Of a stretch of 64,000 bases of DNA, positions 53,558 to 64,000 are shown in pieces. The notes under the pieces are model-generated. The model was not told the origin of the DNA and ran no database searches. It was given only the letters and a program-made list of their open reading frames with translations. Numbering within the stretch: the stretch's first letter is position 1; each line of letters begins with the position of its first letter. The position numbers and the translations under genes were made by a program. Origin of the DNA: Muribaculaceae bacterium (GTDB lineage: Bacteria; Bacteroidota; Bacteroidia; Bacteroidales; Muribaculaceae); NCBI GenBank assembly GCA_029061225.1, contig JAIDSM010000141.1:1-64000 (forward strand), given 5' to 3'.

Positions 53558-53902
53558 TAAATTTTCGAATTATTTCATGGAATACGCGGTAGACTTCCAC
53601 TTCTCTTTTAGAAAAAGCACAGGTCTTATTTTCTATAGAGCAAGAATGCTCCTCAAGCACTATTCGATCTACAAAGTTAAATAAAAAATTTACACCTGCC
53701 AAAAATACCGATGCTTTATTCATCTGTTTTTTATTCATCATCATCATCAAACAAGGTTGTTTCATTTAGCCGCAGTCTTCATGAGATAAGATTGTAAATC
53801 TCCGCATAAGAAGCTTACGCAATAAGGATTATTTTTTTGTCAATGAAATATTGAATTCTCATATTTTTTTTATAAATTTGTATGCTCAAACACCTGTTAT
53901 AT

Positions 53903-55231
53903 ATGAGACTGAAATTAAACAATATTCTGAAAATTAAGAATGCTGATATCGAATTCGGCGGACTTACTGTGCTTACCGGTGAAAACAATACTGGAAAGAG
54001 TACTGTTGGGAAGGTACTTTTTACCCTTCTGAAGGCCGTTAACAACGTACGACATTTAGATAGAATAAAATCAGTCTCGCTTATAAGGAAGGAATTGCTT
54101 GCTGTGGAAAGGATGTTTAGCAATAATCCTCAGATATCTTTGCTGCTGAAAGACATCCAGGATTTAAGTGTCGGTCTTACGGACGGAAGTATACCGATAG
54201 AAAGCTTCCTGAATGACATCGAGAATGCCGTTGATACAGAAGAAACGCCTATCCGTAAGTTGACCATGCTTCGTAACAGTCTGACAAGAATAAAAAAATA
54301 TACAGACATACTGGATAATCCGGAAAACGCGGTAAGAAGCGAATTTGAATCAATATCCAAAAGTGAGTTTATGGAACCGATAAATTCATACGGAACAAAT
54401 CACTCCGTCATACATTTTCAGGATGACACCACTGATTCAGACGGCAGTGATATATTGATTAATATCAGGGATGGGAAAGTAGCAGGAATTCAGTCGGTCG
54501 GAAATACATCAATTGAAGACATCACTTACATAGAATCTCCGGTATTTCTCCAGATTCTTAATATTCTAAGAATTACCAGTCCTATAGTTACTGACTCTCT
54601 GCGAGGCATTGAGAACTCACTGGGCAAGGAGAACATACCCTTTCATCTTGCCGATATGGCTGAAAAAATATTAAGTCCGTCAGAATACACCGGACTATTT
54701 GCCGATATTTTAGAAGAAGACCTTAGGCAATTGCTTGAGAGGATAAACGAAATTATCGGAGGAGAATTTGTAATGGATGGAAAGACAAAGCAGCTTTCAT
54801 TCCATCTGCAGGGCCATAGTGTTCCGCCTGTAAGCGTAGCATCAGGCATTAAATCTTTCGGAATGCTGCAACGATTGATACAGACCGCTAACCTGTCGGC
54901 ATATAAAATGCTCGTATGGGACGAGCCGGAGATTCATCTGCACCCTGAATGGCAAATATCTTTATGCGAAATGATTGTGGAATTGGTTGCCAATGGGATT
55001 CCTGTAATTGTAAGCTCCCATAGCCCATATTTTGTTCAGGGGCTACGTTATTTTGCAGCTGCCAAAGGGCTGGAAAAAGATGTAAGATATTATATGGCAG
55101 AAGCATCATCCGAATCAGGAATGGCGACTGTCAAGGAAGTCACGGAAGACTTGAATAGCGTTTTTACGTTATTGGCTGCACCCTTGCGAAAAATTATGAA
55201 TGTGGATGAAGTTAGAAACACTCAGAAATGA
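53903..55231 (+). CDS. AAA family ATPase (AAA_15/21, OLD/ABC-like)
   Basis: Walker A GENNTGKST; LVWDEPEIHLHPEWQ; IVSSHSPYFVQGL. Confidence 0.88.
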   Translation: MRLKLNNILKIKNADIEFGGLTVLTGENNTGKSTVGKVLFTLLKAVNNVRHLDRIKSVSLIRKELLAVERMFSNNPQISLLLKDIQDLSVGLTDGSIPIESFLNDIENAVDTEETPIRKLTMLRNSLTRIKKYTDILDNPENAVRSEFESISKSEFMEPINSYGTNHSVIHFQDDTTDSDGSDILINIRDGKVAGIQSVGNTSIEDITYIESPVFLQILNILRITSPIVTDSLRGIENSLGKENIPFHLADMAEKILSPSEYTGLFADILEEDLRQLLERINEIIGGEFVMDGKTKQLSFHLQGHSVPPVSVASGIKSFGMLQRLIQTANLSAYKMLVWDEPEIHLHPEWQISLCEMIVELVANGIPVIVSSHSPYFVQGLRYFAAAKGLEKDVRYYMAEASSESGMATVKEVTEDLNSVFTLLAAPLRKIMNVDEVRNTQK

Positions 55232-55848
55232 CTCCATTGCAGGTTTTTTATGGCATTTACGCCTATCAAGAGGAAATTGCAACCATCATCTGCAATCTTC
55301 ACAGTGCATGCCGCTCAGACAAAGGGAAGAGATACATGTGTATTTACGCAGGTTCAAGCTACCCGGTGATTGATTTTGACGAAGTGAAAAACAAAGCAGA
55401 CCTATTTGAATCCAGGGAATCAAGAAAATCAGTTGATGCTTTGGCTTTACCTCCGTCTGAAAGCATACTTTGTTTTGTTGAACTGAAAAGCTGGGAATTG
55501 GTAGTTAAAGATAAAGGTACCGAAAATAAAGTCAGAAAGAAAGCTGGGAAATATGCTTCGGATCTACCCCAAAAACTTACAGACAGCATTGAAATATGTA
55601 GGAATATATTAAAAGACCAGAACGCATTGGATTCATGTAGAATAATGTACATTCTTGTTACCGACATTTCCGTGAATGACAATGGACTTGAAGCCCTTAA
55701 TGCAGACTTGTCTGCATTGGCAGGAATCTCTTCTAATCTTAACAAGCTGTGCAATAGTTTATCCAGGAACATTATGGATAACATCCCTAATGTTGAGACA
55801 CGCTATTGGGAATGTCGTGAATTTGATGATAAAATGAGTAGATTGTGA
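55228..55848 (+). CDS. ATPase-associated protein, possible PD-(D/E)XK-like fold
   Basis: ATGA overlap with ATPase gene; KSVDALALPPSESILCFVELKSWE resembles D..(E)xK. Confidence 0.55.
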   Translation: MTPLQVFYGIYAYQEEIATIICNLHSACRSDKGKRYMCIYAGSSYPVIDFDEVKNKADLFESRESRKSVDALALPPSESILCFVELKSWELVVKDKGTENKVRKKAGKYASDLPQKLTDSIEICRNILKDQNALDSCRIMYILVTDISVNDNGLEALNADLSALAGISSNLNKLCNSLSRNIMDNIPNVETRYWECREFDDKMSRL

Positions 55849-58237: not shown

Positions 58238-58268
58238 TTTGCAGATTCCCATAAAAATATTAACTTTG
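58238..58268 (+). promoter_or_regulatory. Bacteroidetes-type promoter for ncRNA
   Basis: TTTG - 19 bp - TAACTTTG. Confidence 0.65.
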
Positions 58269-58273
58269 CGTTG

Positions 58274-58589
58274 ACTTACGCCGTGCGGCCTCTTTATAGA
58301 GGCCGGGTGATGGGTAGGTCATTAAAAATATGAGAAGCGTTTATTGGCGCTTTGTTCTTGACCGCTAAGAACTTCGCAACTTCTAAGAGAAAGTCAGGAA
58401 TGAGGCAACAGTAGATGCCTTGGGTATGATCTATCTTACCCGATGGTGAGCGTTAAATACGTTCGCTGTCGGTGTATAGTATATCGTACGGCGTAGGCTC
58501 TGCGTGTTGCTCGTTCGACTTTCTCGGGCAATGCGAAGGCCTTTAGCGGTGGAACGAGTAACCGGTACAGTTCCTACGCTTCTTTTTTT
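58274..58589 (+). ncRNA. candidate structured ncRNA (~315 nt) with own promoter and terminator
   Basis: Successive hairpins ggcctct..agaggcc, gttctt..aagaac, aggca..tgcct, gggta..taccc, ctcgttc..gaacgag nested in gcgtagg..cctacgc, then T-tract. Confidence 0.65.
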
Positions 58590-58752
58590 ATACACCGGTC
58601 ATGTTTGGGAGCTGCAGACCACAACAATTAGCGATTGCTCTCAAATATCGTGGTATCTCCGTTCTTTAGTTGTTCTTATGACGATTTAGTGTATTTTAAT
58701 CGTTGTGAGTATAACTATAAAGAGTCAGCAATTGCATCTATGGTAAGAAAGA

Positions 58753-60888
58753 ATGGTAGATATTAATAACCAAGCAAAGAAAATATTCCATATTGGATTG
58801 GTCGATGCAGACCTTCTTTGTAATGGAACGCGCCATCCGAATCTTGCATTATTGAAGCTTGCAGGGTATTTTAGAGATAATGGTTTTGTACGTCAAGAAA
58901 ACGTATTGCAATCCCATTCTCAAAGTACTTATAAATTATTGACGAATGAAAGCACATTAGAGGATTTATTGGCTTTAGACTACATTTACGTTTCATGTGT
59001 ATTTTCTTTTACATTGGATAATCCCCCAATTCTGCTGAATACGATCCTGTGTAATAAGCAATTGAAGAAGAAGCTTCGCATGGGTGGAACTGGTTCCTAT
59101 GCTAACTTATCTGTAGAAGAGGGTTTTGCAGCAAAACGAGAGGAGGATATGTTGAGACTTGAAAAAGACTCCTTTCTCAATAGTTTGAAAGATAATAGGG
59201 GAAGGCATGGTATTGACATGAGTGCACAAATGCCTGATTATCATTTATATGATAGCTATATTAAATTGATGGAGAAATTAAAAAAAGCTCCTACTTATTA
59301 CAAGGATTACAAGGAATATTCAATTGGTTTTCTGACAAGAGGATGTTTTAGACGATGTCCTTTTTGTGTCAATAAGTTAGAGAGAAAAACATTGCCATAT
59401 TCACGTTTGAATGATTTTCTTGATAATGAGATTGATGAAAATACAGGTAAGCTTAAACGTCCTTATATCTATCTTTGGGATGATAATTTCCTTGCTTCTC
59501 CATATTGGGAAGAATTGCTTGATGAACTGATAGCTTGTGGACGACCTTTTCAGTTCCGACAAGGGCTTGATGAACGTTTGCTTGCTCAAACCAAACGTGG
59601 AGAAGATATGGCAAAGAAATTAGCAAGTGCAAACTATCATGGAGATTTCATATTTGCTTTTGATAACTGGCATGATCGTAAAGTTATTGAAAAAGCACTC
59701 AAGATTTGGAAACATCATTGTCCTAAGAAAGAAACCAAATTCTATCTGTTCTGTGGATTCAGACAAAGTAGAACAGATGAAAAAAATTTCCAGCAGGACA
59801 TTGCTGAAATATTCATGAGAATCTGTGTTCTCATGAGGCACGGTTGCCTTGGCTATATAATGAGGCATGAGGATTATAAGCAGGCTCCACTTCCCAATAT
59901 ATATGTACAGATTGCCAGATGGTGTAATCAACCAGGATTTTATAGGAATCTTTCTTTTTGGCAGTTTTGCTACAAGAATCAGACATATTGGGAGGAAAAG
60001 TATCGCGGAGCAGAGAATCTTCCTCTAAAAACTTACGAAGAGTTTGAGCAGGACGTGGAAAATGGTTATTATAAAGAAGTAGGAATGACTACGCCTTTAA
60101 AAACGGTATATGAATTCCTTAATAAATATAGTAAACATAGGCAAATGTTCTTGGATTTATTCAATATGTCTTTTAAGCAAATGATAGATCCAAGCTTGTG
60201 GTATAGACCAATAAGTATCATGTTAAAAGGAATGGAATATATTATGGATGATGATTTCTGGAGTTGCGTATTGGGTGACTCTATAAAAGAGTATGTTCTT
60301 ATGAAAGCTTTTTATACTCATGCGGATGACAGCTTACTCTCTGATGTAACGAAGGCATCTATCCTCCTACAGGTGTTAAGTAAGCATTCATGCAAAGAAA
60401 TAATAAAATTAATCAGAGAAGAAGATAAGTTGTTTGTAATTGAGATGAAAGATATTCCTCAGTTTAGTGATTTTAAAGACGCTTATTTTTCTGTACCAAA
60501 AAAATTGGTAAATTGCGGAGATCAGAATATTGACTACGAACGAATGGGATATATGCTTAGCGGTACTTTAAAGAATGGCGTTGCCAATAAGAAGTATGGA
60601 GAAAATCATATTAAAACGGCAGCCTTAATGGGTCTATGTTCATTTTCAAAATGTAGAACTAATAAGAACGCTTTAGGAGAACTGTTCATTAAATTACCGG
60701 ATGATGCAAGAGATAATATTCTACCTAAGCTTTGTTTATATATACCATTTATTCATAATTATTTTAAACTTGGCGCATCAGACGAAGTGAGAGAATCAAT
60801 GCTTAGCATATTGTCCATAACTACACAAAATCGTCGACGTTCAAATATTAATACGATTATAGAGGAAGTGAAAAAGGCCTTGAGATGA
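58753..60888 (+). CDS. large radical SAM protein
   Basis: CX3CX2C motif GFLTRGCFRRCPFCVNK; N-terminal VDADLLCNGTRHPNLALLKLAGYFRDNG resembling the domain preceding radical SAM in B12-binding-type proteins. Confidence 0.85.
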   Translation: MVDINNQAKKIFHIGLVDADLLCNGTRHPNLALLKLAGYFRDNGFVRQENVLQSHSQSTYKLLTNESTLEDLLALDYIYVSCVFSFTLDNPPILLNTILCNKQLKKKLRMGGTGSYANLSVEEGFAAKREEDMLRLEKDSFLNSLKDNRGRHGIDMSAQMPDYHLYDSYIKLMEKLKKAPTYYKDYKEYSIGFLTRGCFRRCPFCVNKLERKTLPYSRLNDFLDNEIDENTGKLKRPYIYLWDDNFLASPYWEELLDELIACGRPFQFRQGLDERLLAQTKRGEDMAKKLASANYHGDFIFAFDNWHDRKVIEKALKIWKHHCPKKETKFYLFCGFRQSRTDEKNFQQDIAEIFMRICVLMRHGCLGYIMRHEDYKQAPLPNIYVQIARWCNQPGFYRNLSFWQFCYKNQTYWEEKYRGAENLPLKTYEEFEQDVENGYYKEVGMTTPLKTVYEFLNKYSKHRQMFLDLFNMSFKQMIDPSLWYRPISIMLKGMEYIMDDDFWSCVLGDSIKEYVLMKAFYTHADDSLLSDVTKASILLQVLSKHSCKEIIKLIREEDKLFVIEMKDIPQFSDFKDAYFSVPKKLVNCGDQNIDYERMGYMLSGTLKNGVANKKYGENHIKTAALMGLCSFSKCRTNKNALGELFIKLPDDARDNILPKLCLYIPFIHNYFKLGASDEVRESMLSILSITTQNRRRSNINTIIEEVKKALR

Positions 60889-63014
60889 CATATAAGGATA
60901 TTGACATACAAGCTTGTTATGAATCAGGAACATGTGACATTGTAGAAGATTTCTATGAACCTGTTCTTGTCTCATCTGTGTCTTATGACAGAATAACTGG
61001 TTTTTTCTCTTCTTCCGCATTAGCGATAGCTGCAAGAGGCTTGTATGGATTTATAAAAAACAAAGGACATATGCGTCTTATATCATCTCCGATTCTTAGT
61101 TCTGACGATGCAGATATCATTCGTAAGGTAATTAATACTCCGGAAGAGCTAACAGAAGATGATCTGGGGATAAATTTATCTGATCTGCGAAATGAATTTG
61201 AGGAAAACCATATATCCGCACTTGGGTGGATGCTTAAATCGGGTCTTCTTGAAATAAAGCTTGCGGTTATTATCAATAAAAATGGAGGTTTGTGCAATTT
61301 TGAGGAAGTAAAAGGCAATGGTCTTTTCCATCAAAAAGTAGGAGTTCTTATGGATATGGAAGGGAACAGAATTTCTTTCAGTGGATCCATCAATGAAACA
61401 GCATCTGCGTGGGTGAATAATGACGAAGAATTTAAGGTATTTAAGGAATGGGGAAACTCGCATGATTATTTTGTCAAGGATAAAACCAGATTTGATGAAA
61501 TATGGAATGGGAAAAGAAAAAATATAAAAATATTTGATCTTCCGTCGGCAATTCAAAACAGCTTAATAAAATATTCCAAAGATTTTGATATTGAAAAAAT
61601 TTCTATTAAGCAATATCGAAAATCAAAAATCAATATGTTCAACTTTGAGAATAGTCCCATAACATTATTCGGTTATCAAGCAGAAGCACTTAATCTTTGG
61701 AAAGGTAATACGTATAGATTGTTATTTGAAATGGCGACTGGAACTGGAAAAACGCGTACAGCAGTCGCAGGTATCGCTCGTGTATTAGCTACTTCAAAAA
61801 AGGTTGTGGTAATAATATCAACGCCTCAAAATACCCTTTCAAAACAATGGAAAGAAAATGAAATAGAAATGTTGAATGTAATCTTTGACAGAAGTGAAAT
61901 AATCGATGGAACCAGGAGATTCTGGGATAAGAAGCTCAGTGATCTCCTTTTGGAGAATGCTGCAGGATTCTCAAACCATGTAGTGATTTATACTACTCAT
62001 GCTACATCCTCATCTTTTAAATTTACATCCATTATAGAAAAGGAACTTTCAAAAGAGAGTGTAACTTTGTTTGTTGGCGATGAAGTTCATTGGTTGGGAG
62101 CAAAAGGTTTGCGTAGGGCTCTTTTGCCAAGATATGATTTTAGAATAGGATTGAGTGCTACTCCTACGCGTTGGTTTGACAATGAAGGGAGTGTGTTGAT
62201 TGAAAAGTACTTTGGTAATAAAAAATTTGTATTCTCTATACATGATGCATTAACAGAATTCAATCCTCTAACAGGAAAACATTTTCTTGTAAATTACTAT
62301 TACTATGTGAGTAAAGTTGAATTGAATGTAGATGAAACTATAGAATATAAAAAAATCACACAGCAGTTACTCAGTCTTAAAAATAAAGCTGAATTATTTC
62401 CAGAGGTAGCAGACCGTTACGAGAGACTTCTGGAACAAAGAGCTAATATTATCAAGAACGCAGATGCTAAATATGAGGCGCTTGGTAAAATTATTGATGA
62501 TTTAAATAGAAAGGGTAGGATAGAAAACGTGATTATATTTGTTTCCCCTCAACAAATTAACAAGGTCACGGAAATCCTTATAAAGAAGGATGTGATATTC
62601 CATAAGTTGACAGAATCGCAAGGAACAAGACCCGAGAAAAAATATAAAGGTCTATCTGAACGTGAGTTTATAATTTCAAAATTTAAAACCGGTGAATATC
62701 AAACATTGATAGCTATAAAGTGTTTGGATGAAGGTATCGATATTCCTACTGCCAACACTGGAATTCTTATGTCAAGCAGTACTAATCCGCGAGAATATGT
62801 ACAACGAATTGGAAGAATTATCAGGCAAAGTGAAGGGAAAAACTTTGCGTATCTTTATGATATTTGTGTTGGTAAAATCACCACTTTAGACAATGATGAG
62901 CAAAAATTTGAAAATAATATTAGAAAAAAAGAGGCTATGCGTCTCAAAGAAATTGCGGAAAATGCAATTAATACGGTGGATGCGATCGAAGTAATTAACT
63001 CATTAAGTAAATAG
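60885..63014 (+). CDS. DEAD/DEAH-type helicase with N-terminal PLD-like domain
   Basis: PLD half-site FHQKVGVL..ISFSGSINETASAW; Walker A EMATGTGKTRTA; GDEVHWLGA; GLSATPTR; QRIGRIIRQSEGK; ATGA overlap with upstream gene. Confidence 0.92.
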   Translation: MTYKDIDIQACYESGTCDIVEDFYEPVLVSSVSYDRITGFFSSSALAIAARGLYGFIKNKGHMRLISSPILSSDDADIIRKVINTPEELTEDDLGINLSDLRNEFEENHISALGWMLKSGLLEIKLAVIINKNGGLCNFEEVKGNGLFHQKVGVLMDMEGNRISFSGSINETASAWVNNDEEFKVFKEWGNSHDYFVKDKTRFDEIWNGKRKNIKIFDLPSAIQNSLIKYSKDFDIEKISIKQYRKSKINMFNFENSPITLFGYQAEALNLWKGNTYRLLFEMATGTGKTRTAVAGIARVLATSKKVVVIISTPQNTLSKQWKENEIEMLNVIFDRSEIIDGTRRFWDKKLSDLLLENAAGFSNHVVIYTTHATSSSFKFTSIIEKELSKESVTLFVGDEVHWLGAKGLRRALLPRYDFRIGLSATPTRWFDNEGSVLIEKYFGNKKFVFSIHDALTEFNPLTGKHFLVNYYYYVSKVELNVDETIEYKKITQQLLSLKNKAELFPEVADRYERLLEQRANIIKNADAKYEALGKIIDDLNRKGRIENVIIFVSPQQINKVTEILIKKDVIFHKLTESQGTRPEKKYKGLSEREFIISKFKTGEYQTLIAIKCLDEGIDIPTANTGILMSSSTNPREYVQRIGRIIRQSEGKNFAYLYDICVGKITTLDNDEQKFENNIRKKEAMRLKEIAENAINTVDAIEVINSLSK

Positions 63015-63020
63015 AAAACC

Positions 63021-63170
63021 ATGGCTCTAAACGAAAATGTTAAAGAAAAGATCACTCAGAAAATTGGTGATGATCAATTACTGAAAGATGCTGTCATCAC
63101 TATTTTAAAAGGTGTGGATGAAAGCAAGCAGTTAAAACGTATAATTGAACACATTCTAAAAACAATCTGA
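63021..63170 (+). CDS. 49-aa hypothetical protein between helicase and ATPase
   Basis: MALNENVKEKITQKIGDDQLLKDAVITILKGVDESKQLKRIIEHILKTI; 6 nt after the helicase stop, 1 nt before next ATG. Confidence 0.65.
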   Translation: MALNENVKEKITQKIGDDQLLKDAVITILKGVDESKQLKRIIEHILKTI

Positions 63171-63171
63171 T

Positions 63172-64000
63172 ATGAGGATTGAATCGATAAAAATACATAA
63201 CCTTCGTCAGTTAAAAGACATCACGCTCAGATTTGTGAAGCAGTCCGGTGAGAATGATTTGAATATCATTCTTGCCGAAAATGGTGTTGGTAAAACAAAT
63301 ATTCTAAATGCAATCACTTGGTGTTTGTATAATCAGGAAATGCATCTCCGCGACAAGAAAAACGCACTTCCTATCGTAAATACCCAAGTTGTGGAGGAAA
63401 TGATTCAATATGGTGGAGGTCAGGTAGATGTATCTGTAGAGCTAATTGTCAATACGGATGATAATGACAAAATAACCTTTAGGCGAATTGCTATGTTTAA
63501 TGTTACCAACGATGACGTAGTTGATCTGAATGATAAACTTTCCATAAGTTATCTTGGCAAGGATGGATATAGGATTGTTGATAGCGATGAGGAAACCAAA
63601 GAATTGGTTCATAAGTATCTTCCCGAGGAGATTTGCAATTATATTTTCTTTGACGGAGAACAACTTGAAAAGTTTTTTTCCTTTGATCAGCTTAAAAATG
63701 TAAAAGATGGAATCCATGAATTTACTCAGGCATCGTATTTAAAATATGGTTATGAATATTTGGAAAAGTACGTCAAAGAGTTTATAAATTCAAAAATAAG
63801 TAAGGGTGGAGACAAGGAATTGAAGGAGCTGCAGAAGAAAGTTGAAGAACTGGATTCTCAGATAAGTCTTTCTGAAATAACTATAGAGGAGATTAAGAAT
63901 AATATTTTTCAATGTGAGTCCCATATTGATGAATTAACTGCAAAAATCCATGGTTGTGAAAATGTTCGTGAAAAGGCTGAGGAACTCAAAGAATCGGAAC
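63172..64000 (+). CDS. DndD/SMC-like ATPase, truncated by window end
   Basis: MRIESIKIHNLRQLKDITLRF..NIILAENGVGKTNILNAITWCLY..EICNYIFFDGEQLEKF..then coiled coil; open at 64000. Confidence 0.88.
   Translation, partial: MRIESIKIHNLRQLKDITLRFVKQSGENDLNIILAENGVGKTNILNAITWCLYNQEMHLRDKKNALPIVNTQVVEEMIQYGGGQVDVSVELIVNTDDNDKITFRRIAMFNVTNDDVVDLNDKLSISYLGKDGYRIVDSDEETKELVHKYLPEEICNYIFFDGEQLEKFFSFDQLKNVKDGIHEFTQASYLKYGYEYLEKYVKEFINSKISKGGDKELKELQKKVEELDSQISLSEITIEEIKNNIFQCESHIDELTAKIHGCENVREKAEELKESE

What the first reader, a model, noticed from the sequence alone, without database searches (positions are those of the whole stretch)
58274..64000. Candidate undescribed system: structured ncRNA, radical SAM protein, PLD-helicase, 49-aa protein and DndD-like ATPase
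Seen: an AT-rich, same-strand, tightly packed gene string. The radical SAM gene ends 4 nt inside the helicase start, a 49-aa ORF fits exactly between helicase and ATPase, and an independent-looking ncRNA sits just upstream. Known: DndD/SMC-like ATPases and PLD-helicases recur in DNA-modification and phage-defence loci. Inference: the large radical SAM protein (CX3CX2C) may supply a modification chemistry, with the helicase and ATPase as effector. I do not recognise this combination as a named defence system.
Basis: partly seen in the sequence, partly recalled or inferred. Interest (0 to 1): 0.82.

Follow-up and report, generated by a model that had tools for sequence, protein, structure and literature searches.

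The report
Radical-SAM enzyme paired with PbeABCD defence
A gut bacterium carries a known anti-virus gene set (PbeABCD) whose usual DNA-marking enzymes are replaced by a single large radical-SAM enzyme; the same enzyme family is repeatedly swapped among four different DNA-restriction gene sets, so it probably makes a still unknown self-mark on DNA.

Summary
Past the window edge the operon is rSAM(711 aa)-PbeA-PbeB(49 aa)-PbeC-PbeD: the helicase, 49-aa protein and ATPase are the known PbeABCD module (PADLOC PbeA 5e-201, PbeC 6e-79). The new part is the radical SAM gene. PbeABCD normally sits beside DNA-modification genes (Dnd/Ssp phosphorothioation or methylases): 7 of 7 other PbeABCD loci examined in this order do. 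Here, and in 18 further loci from Bacteroidota, Bacillota, Actinomycetota and one viral contig, only the rSAM occupies that place. The same rSAM family joins DrmAB (DISARM-core), DndFGH and SNF2-helicase operons; its tree needs at least 21 partner changes. 28 of 29 such genomes lack DndC. Phage homologues often abut DNA methylases. AlphaFold (pLDDT 95) shows a MiaB-like radical-SAM core plus, by my reading of its secondary structure, a winged-helix-like C-terminal domain. Best explanation: the rSAM protein writes an unknown DNA self-mark that licenses interchangeable restriction modules. Chemistry and defence activity are inferred, not shown. The structured RNA is real but is a lineage-specific, multi-copy leader before many unrelated genes, not a specific part of the system.

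The parts
58753..60888 (+). Radical SAM gene, 711 aa; first gene of the operon; proposed DNA-modification enzyme
   Evidence: Pfam Radical_SAM 5.7e-5, below gathering; phrog_9298 2.7e-30; AF2 pLDDT 94.8; family alignment A4
59344..59367 (+). CX3CX2C [4Fe-4S]/SAM motif (C198, C202, C205), invariant in 105 of 105 relatives
60250..60885 (+). C-terminal domain of the rSAM protein (residues about 500-711), winged-helix-like by my reading of the predicted secondary structure; motifs KYGENHIKTA and TxxRR; a separate ORF in many relatives; putative DNA-binding domain
   Evidence: no Pfam or PDB sequence match
60885..63014 (+). PbeA: PLD (HKD) nuclease domain + SF2 helicase, 709 aa
   Evidence: PADLOC PbeA 5e-201; TIGR04095 3e-94, below its cut-off
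61329..61394 (+). HKD nuclease motif HQKVGVLMD...SFSGSIN, conserved in all 19 PbeA of rSAM operons
63021..63170 (+). PbeB-position small protein, 49 aa
   Evidence: homologues of 49-52 aa at the same place in 11 loci
63172..64000 (+). PbeC (DndD-like ABC ATPase); cut by the window end, complete gene to 65142 of the contig (656 aa), with CxxC hook
   Evidence: PADLOC PbeC 5.9e-79; TIGR03185 6e-29, below its cut-off
58276..58589 (+). Structured leader RNA upstream of the operon; multi-copy lineage-specific family, not a specific component

Best explanation
The operon is a restriction-modification-like antiviral system. PbeABCD is the restriction arm: PbeC and PbeD (ABC ATPase plus DndE-like protein) scan DNA, and PbeA (SF2 helicase with PLD/HKD nuclease) acts on DNA lacking the right mark. 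The large radical SAM protein is the modification arm: its radical-SAM core chemically alters DNA at sites chosen with its C-terminal, probably winged-helix, DNA-binding domain. It replaces the Dnd/Ssp phosphorothioation enzymes or methylases that occupy this slot in other PbeABCD loci. The same rSAM family serves DrmAB (DISARM-core), DndFGH and SNF2-helicase restriction modules. Shown by sequence: gene content, order, conservation, repeated partner exchange, absence of known modification genes in the loci, intact catalytic motifs. Inferred: that the substrate is DNA, that the product is a self-mark, that the system is antiviral. Unknown: the chemistry. A MiaB-like fold suggests nucleic-acid alkylation or sulfur chemistry, but MiaB's auxiliary-cluster cysteines are absent.
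For: (1) rSAM-PbeABCD in the same order in 18 further loci (L027-L033, L036, L037, L069, L079, L082, L083, L087, L088, L094, L106, viral L107) from Bacteroidota, Bacillota, Actinomycetota and a viral contig. (2) The same rSAM is first gene of DndFGH operons (DndF 1e-88, DndG 3e-46, DndH 1e-298), of DrmA (6e-182) and DrmB (up to 9e-54) operons, and first or adjacent in SNF2-helicase operons. (3) The tree needs at least 21 changes of partner module. L039 and L049 rSAMs are 89% identical with DndFGH versus DrmA. L106 shares the window's Pbe best (PbeA 60%, PbeC 48%) but its rSAM only 38%. (4) Control: in 338 genomes of the order, the seven other PbeABCD loci examined all carry a modification gene: two methylases, SspD (five loci), or DndC. 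(5) DndC above cut-off in 1 of 29 genomes with rSAM-Pbe or rSAM-DndFGH, SspD in 4 of them, none beside the rSAM; the own genome shows neither. No SspD/DndC/methylase match in L027-L106 with the queries used, except one weak C5-methylase-like ORF in L094. (6) Phage homologues lie within 60 nt of a ParB-N6/N4 or C5 DNA methylase in 32 of 81 viral loci. (7) Best PDB fold match is MiaB.
Against: No experiment shows a DNA modification or phage resistance. The MiaB match has low TM-scores (0.27/0.40), and MiaB acts on tRNA, so an RNA substrate is not excluded. Most DrmAB- and DndFGH-linked rSAMs lack the C-terminal domain, so site choice would need another protein there. Solitary PbeAC without any modification gene is common (320 of 553 without dndCD, 155 of these near candidate methylases; PMC6459918), so absence of Dnd alone is weak. 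The methylase check was partial: one C5 query, two amino-methylase queries and a motif search, and the Pfam table for flanking genes listed only the 25 commonest families. Many loci are from incomplete metagenome assemblies (own genome 86% complete).
Confidence: 0.66

Rival explanations
1. The rSAM protein is a second effector or sensor rather than a self-marking enzyme, for example making a toxic nucleotide (viperin-like) or altering invader DNA, and is linked to several defence modules because they collaborate.
For: Radical SAM antiviral enzymes (viperins) exist (general knowledge); gene linkage alone does not set the direction of action.
Against: The modules it joins (PbeABCD, DndFGH, DrmAB) are the restriction arms of modification-dependent systems, and it sits where their modification genes otherwise sit. 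The family profile matches no PDB chain, viperin included.
Confidence: 0.14
2. The rSAM modifies RNA (tRNA), as its MiaB-like fold suggests, and the restriction module senses loss of that modification during infection.
For: MiaB is the top PDB fold match.
Against: A winged-helix-like partner domain accompanies it in the Pbe and SNF2 operons; phage relatives cluster with DNA methylases; the partner modules act on DNA by family.
Confidence: 0.1
3. The PbeABCD here is an ordinary solitary cassette and the rSAM is an unrelated passenger gene.
For: Solitary PbeAC is frequent (PMC6459918).
Against: The rSAM(-CTD)-PbeA junction, a short overlap or gap, recurs in 18 further loci in three bacterial phyla, and the rSAM recurs with three other restriction modules.
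Confidence: 0.04
4. The 49-aa PbeB is a peptide substrate of the rSAM (RiPP-like), and the modified peptide controls the nuclease.
For: rSAM near a short ORF resembles RiPP loci.
Against: PbeB is part of PbeABCD in systems described without an rSAM (PMC6459918, PMC10853773), and the rSAM occurs with DndFGH and DrmAB modules in which no PbeB homologue was found.
Confidence: 0.03

Closest known systems
PbeABCD with DndCDEA (Xiong 2019, PMC6459918), also called CxC ABC ATPase-DndE system (Rakesh 2024, PMC10853773)
   Same: Same four effector genes in the same order, with intact HKD, helicase and CxxC-hook motifs
   Different: No DndCDEA, Ssp or methylase gene in the locus; a radical SAM protein stands in that place; neither DndC nor SspD found in the genome
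DISARM (DrmA, DrmB plus DNA methylase)
   Same: Relatives of this rSAM head DrmA/DrmB operons
   Different: The window has no Drm genes; the rSAM-DrmAB operons show no methylase with the queries used and add a NERD-helicase and an ~800-aa protein
DndBCDE-DndFGH phosphorothioation defence
   Same: Relatives of this rSAM head DndFGH operons
   Different: No DndC near; radical SAM instead of the PP-loop/cysteine-desulfurase chemistry
Phage rSAM family phrog_9298
   Same: Same family by sequence; often beside DNA methylases
   Different: Mostly no restriction genes and no C-terminal winged-helix-like domain
MiaB/RimO methylthiotransferases
   Same: Best PDB fold match: Rossmann-like N-domain plus radical-SAM core
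   Different: The auxiliary-cluster cysteines of the N-terminal domain are absent; instead two near-invariant cysteines, C365 and C391, follow the motif-bearing part of the core

Membership tests
PbeABCD | PbeA: PLD/HKD domain fused to SF2 helicase | tested here: met
   PADLOC PbeA 5e-201; HKD and helicase motifs intact
PbeABCD | PbeB small protein between PbeA and PbeC | tested here: met
   49 aa at 63021-63170, homologues in the same place in 11 loci
PbeABCD | PbeC DndD-like ABC ATPase with cysteine hook | tested here: met
   PADLOC PbeC 5.9e-79; hook CLVC
PbeABCD | PbeD (DndE-like) closing the cassette | tested here: inconclusive
   156-aa gene in the right place, conserved in rSAM-Pbe loci; only a weak TIGR04062 match, E 0.001
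PbeABCD | Pairing with DndCDEA phosphorothioation (the experimentally shown system) | tested here: not met
   Gene context only: no DndC or SspD found in the own genome, which is 86% complete
PbeABCD | Antiviral activity | not testable with these tools
   Needs cloning and phage challenge
Radical SAM superfamily | CX3CX2C motif in a radical-SAM core | tested here: met
   Invariant in 105 of 105 relatives; Pfam 5.7e-5; fold match to MiaB and BlsE
Methylthiotransferase (MiaB/RimO) | Three conserved cysteines in the N-terminal domain for the auxiliary cluster | tested here: not met
   No conserved N-domain cysteine in the family
Cobalamin-dependent radical SAM enzymes | DxHxxG cobalamin motif in the N-domain | tested here: not met
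   No histidine among the 95%-conserved N-domain positions; some cobalamin enzymes lack the motif, so cobalamin use is not excluded
DISARM | DrmA and DrmB in the locus | tested here: not met
   Absent in the window; present with other members of this rSAM family
Dnd phosphorothioation | DndC | tested here: not met
   No match in the own genome

The most novel reading that the evidence does not exclude
A radical-SAM enzyme family installs a previously unknown covalent modification of DNA (base or backbone) and serves as a plug-in self-mark for at least four unrelated restriction modules (PbeABCD, DrmAB, DndFGH, SNF2 operon): another class of DNA-marking machinery beside methylases, phosphorothioation and deazaguanine insertion, also carried by phages.
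Probability: 0.55. Interest if true: 0.93.

Novelty: new variant of a known kind. Interest (0 to 1): 0.82.

Why it matters
More than half of the PbeAC cassettes surveyed in 2019 lack PT genes and were called solitary or possibly inactive (PMC6459918). This gives some of them a partner, and offers one candidate enzyme that would license four different restriction arms. If it marks DNA, it would be a new epigenetic chemistry, testable by mass spectrometry on carriers such as Bacteroides ndongoniae, Paraprevotella clara, Dysgonomonas sp. 520 or Enorma massiliensis.

Tried and rejected
Rfam at gathering and at relaxed thresholds: no family for the RNA. RNA as a system component: rejected, since the family has several copies per genome in the genus, before unrelated genes. 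rSAM and C-terminal domain against PDB sequences and Pfam: nothing informative. Viral-contig scan with the single window protein: nothing; the alignment was needed. The ~800-aa protein of the DrmAB operons: model pLDDT 79, only low-scoring SF2-helicase-like matches, not identified. A DndH scan of the order found nothing, so no base rate for DndFGH was obtained. Literature: no held paper links a radical SAM protein with Pbe, DISARM or DndFGH. The 2020 ABC-ATPase survey that first described CxC systems is not held, so an earlier mention there is not excluded.

Full report
Observation. All described genes exist at the stated places. The contig continues to 69,754 bp, so the operon could be completed: rSAM 711 aa, helicase 709 aa, 49 aa, ATPase 656 aa, 156 aa, all on the + strand. 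It is followed on the other strand by an HNH gene and an AAA-ATPase/PD-(D/E)XK gene.

What the effector genes are. PADLOC gives the helicase as PbeA (5e-201) and the ATPase as PbeC (5.9e-79); NCBIfam gives TIGR04095 (phosphorothioation-system restriction enzyme, 3e-94) and DndD (6e-29), both below their curated cut-offs; the 156-aa protein weakly matches TIGR04062 (0.001). According to PMC10853773, PbeA is an HKD nuclease fused to an SF2 helicase, PbeB a fast-evolving small protein, PbeC the CxC-type ABC ATPase and PbeD the DndE cognate. That is the gene order here. In Haloterrigena, DndCDEA-PbeABCD blocks a virus and all four pbe genes are needed (PMC6459918).

What is new. The rSAM has no PADLOC or NCBIfam hit and only a sub-threshold Pfam hit, but matches phrog_9298. 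A family alignment used on the GTDB contig collection returned the 80 best of 122 relatives, and on IMG/VR the 80 best of 122. Neighbourhood clustering with profile scans showed four bacterial arrangements: A, rSAM-PbeABCD; B, rSAM-NERD helicase-~800-aa protein-DrmA-DrmB; C, rSAM-DndF-DndG-DndH; D, rSAM with a SNF2 helicase flanked by two copies of a ~330-aa protein (in one locus, L085, the rSAM follows rather than leads). In phages the rSAM is within 60 nt of a ParB-N6/N4 methylase or a C5 methylase in 32 of 81 loci, sometimes with a SAM-synthetase-like gene.

Is it the modification arm? Three tests. First, a control: among 338 genomes of the same order, 10 have PbeA; in the seven others whose surroundings were read, each has a modification gene beside PbeABCD: two methylases (L228), SspD (L229, L230, L231, L233, L234), or DndC with DndD/E (L232). 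Second, in 29 genomes with arrangement A or C, DndC above cut-off occurs once and SspD in four, none beside the rSAM; 24 have neither. No DndC, SspD, SspA or methylase match was found in L027-L106 with the queries used, apart from one weak C5-like ORF in L094 and one motif-IV ORF in L055. Third, the rSAM tree needs at least 21 changes of partner among A-D, and starred branches alone force 6-9 per module. Close pairs have different partners: L039 (DndFGH) and L049 (DrmA), 89% identical; L081 (SNF2) and L044 (DrmA), 86%; the window (Pbe) and L034 (DrmA), 79-81%. In the reverse direction, L106 has the Pbe module closest to the window's among those compared (PbeA 60%, PbeB 47%, PbeC 48%, PbeD 42%) but a distant rSAM (38%). 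A plug-in that is exchanged among restriction arms behaves like a modification module.

The protein. The AlphaFold model of all 711 residues is confident (pLDDT 94.8, pTM 0.83). The core is a Rossmann-like N-domain plus radical-SAM domain; MiaB is the best solved match (E 4e-5, but TM 0.27/0.40). CX3CX2C is invariant; C365 (101 of 104) and C391 (103 of 104) are near-invariant. That two-cysteine pattern recalls the two catalytic cysteines of RlmN/Cfr, but this is analogy from memory and was not tested. MiaB's auxiliary cysteines and the cobalamin motif are missing. The C-terminal domain has helix-helix-helix-strand-strand order, which I read as winged-helix, with conserved KYGEN(H/Q)xK and STxxRR; it occurs in nearly all A and most D loci, fused or separate, sometimes with an S24-peptidase-like extension, and in the L034/L035 pair of B, but not in most B or C loci.

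The RNA. It is strongly structured (z -8.9), with covariation in a six-sequence alignment (26 of 53 pairs). It was found in 30 of 36 same-genus genomes besides this one, with up to nine matches per genome, and in 1 of 24 sampled genomes elsewhere in the order. In the 13 copies whose terminator T-run could be located, a same-strand ORF starts 6-180 nt downstream, and the genes are unrelated. It also precedes the rSAM in L041, L055, L069 and L106, two of them SNF2-type. The best reading is a lineage-specific 5' leader or attenuator.

Limits. Every functional statement rests on context and homology. Many contigs are metagenome assemblies. The 2020 ABC-ATPase survey could not be read, so priority is not settled. 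The label 'new variant of a known kind' reflects that PbeABCD itself is known; a new DNA modification, if confirmed, would deserve more.

Noticed in passing
window 58261-58589: Leader RNA family: multi-copy in the genus, promoter and terminator, no Rfam family, before lipoprotein, PLD-like, KAP-NTPase-like and other accessory genes.
   Followed up: partly
L028, L033, L034, L036, L040, L047, L049, L050, L054, L058, L061, L062, L073, L090, L103: A small ORF (84-119 aa, motif FEELVNWS...LVL...LVCL) directly upstream of the rSAM in 15 loci of all four arrangements; absent in the window; possibly a regulator or a further part of the module.
   Followed up: partly
L003 9634-10113 (-), contig 65633-66112, just outside the window: HNH nuclease gene convergent with the operon; a relative (36% identity) lies beside a truncated rSAM in L102.
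   Followed up: partly
window 53882-55848: AAA_21 ATPase (HEC-02A/PD-T4-4-like by PADLOC) followed by an overlapping 206-aa gene with no family: another candidate two-gene defence locus.
   Followed up: no
L041, L052, L055, L074, L081, L084, L085, L091, L098, L099, L103, L104, L105, L113: SNF2-helicase operon with two copies of a ~330-aa protein (weak PDC-M38A) and a ~138-aa protein, linked to rSAM: an apparently undescribed restriction module.
   Followed up: partly
L052, L113: The winged-helix-like C-terminal domain is fused to an S24/LexA-like peptidase region, judged by eye.
   Followed up: no
L107 4732-11346: A complete rSAM-PbeABCD set on a contig classed as viral.
   Followed up: no
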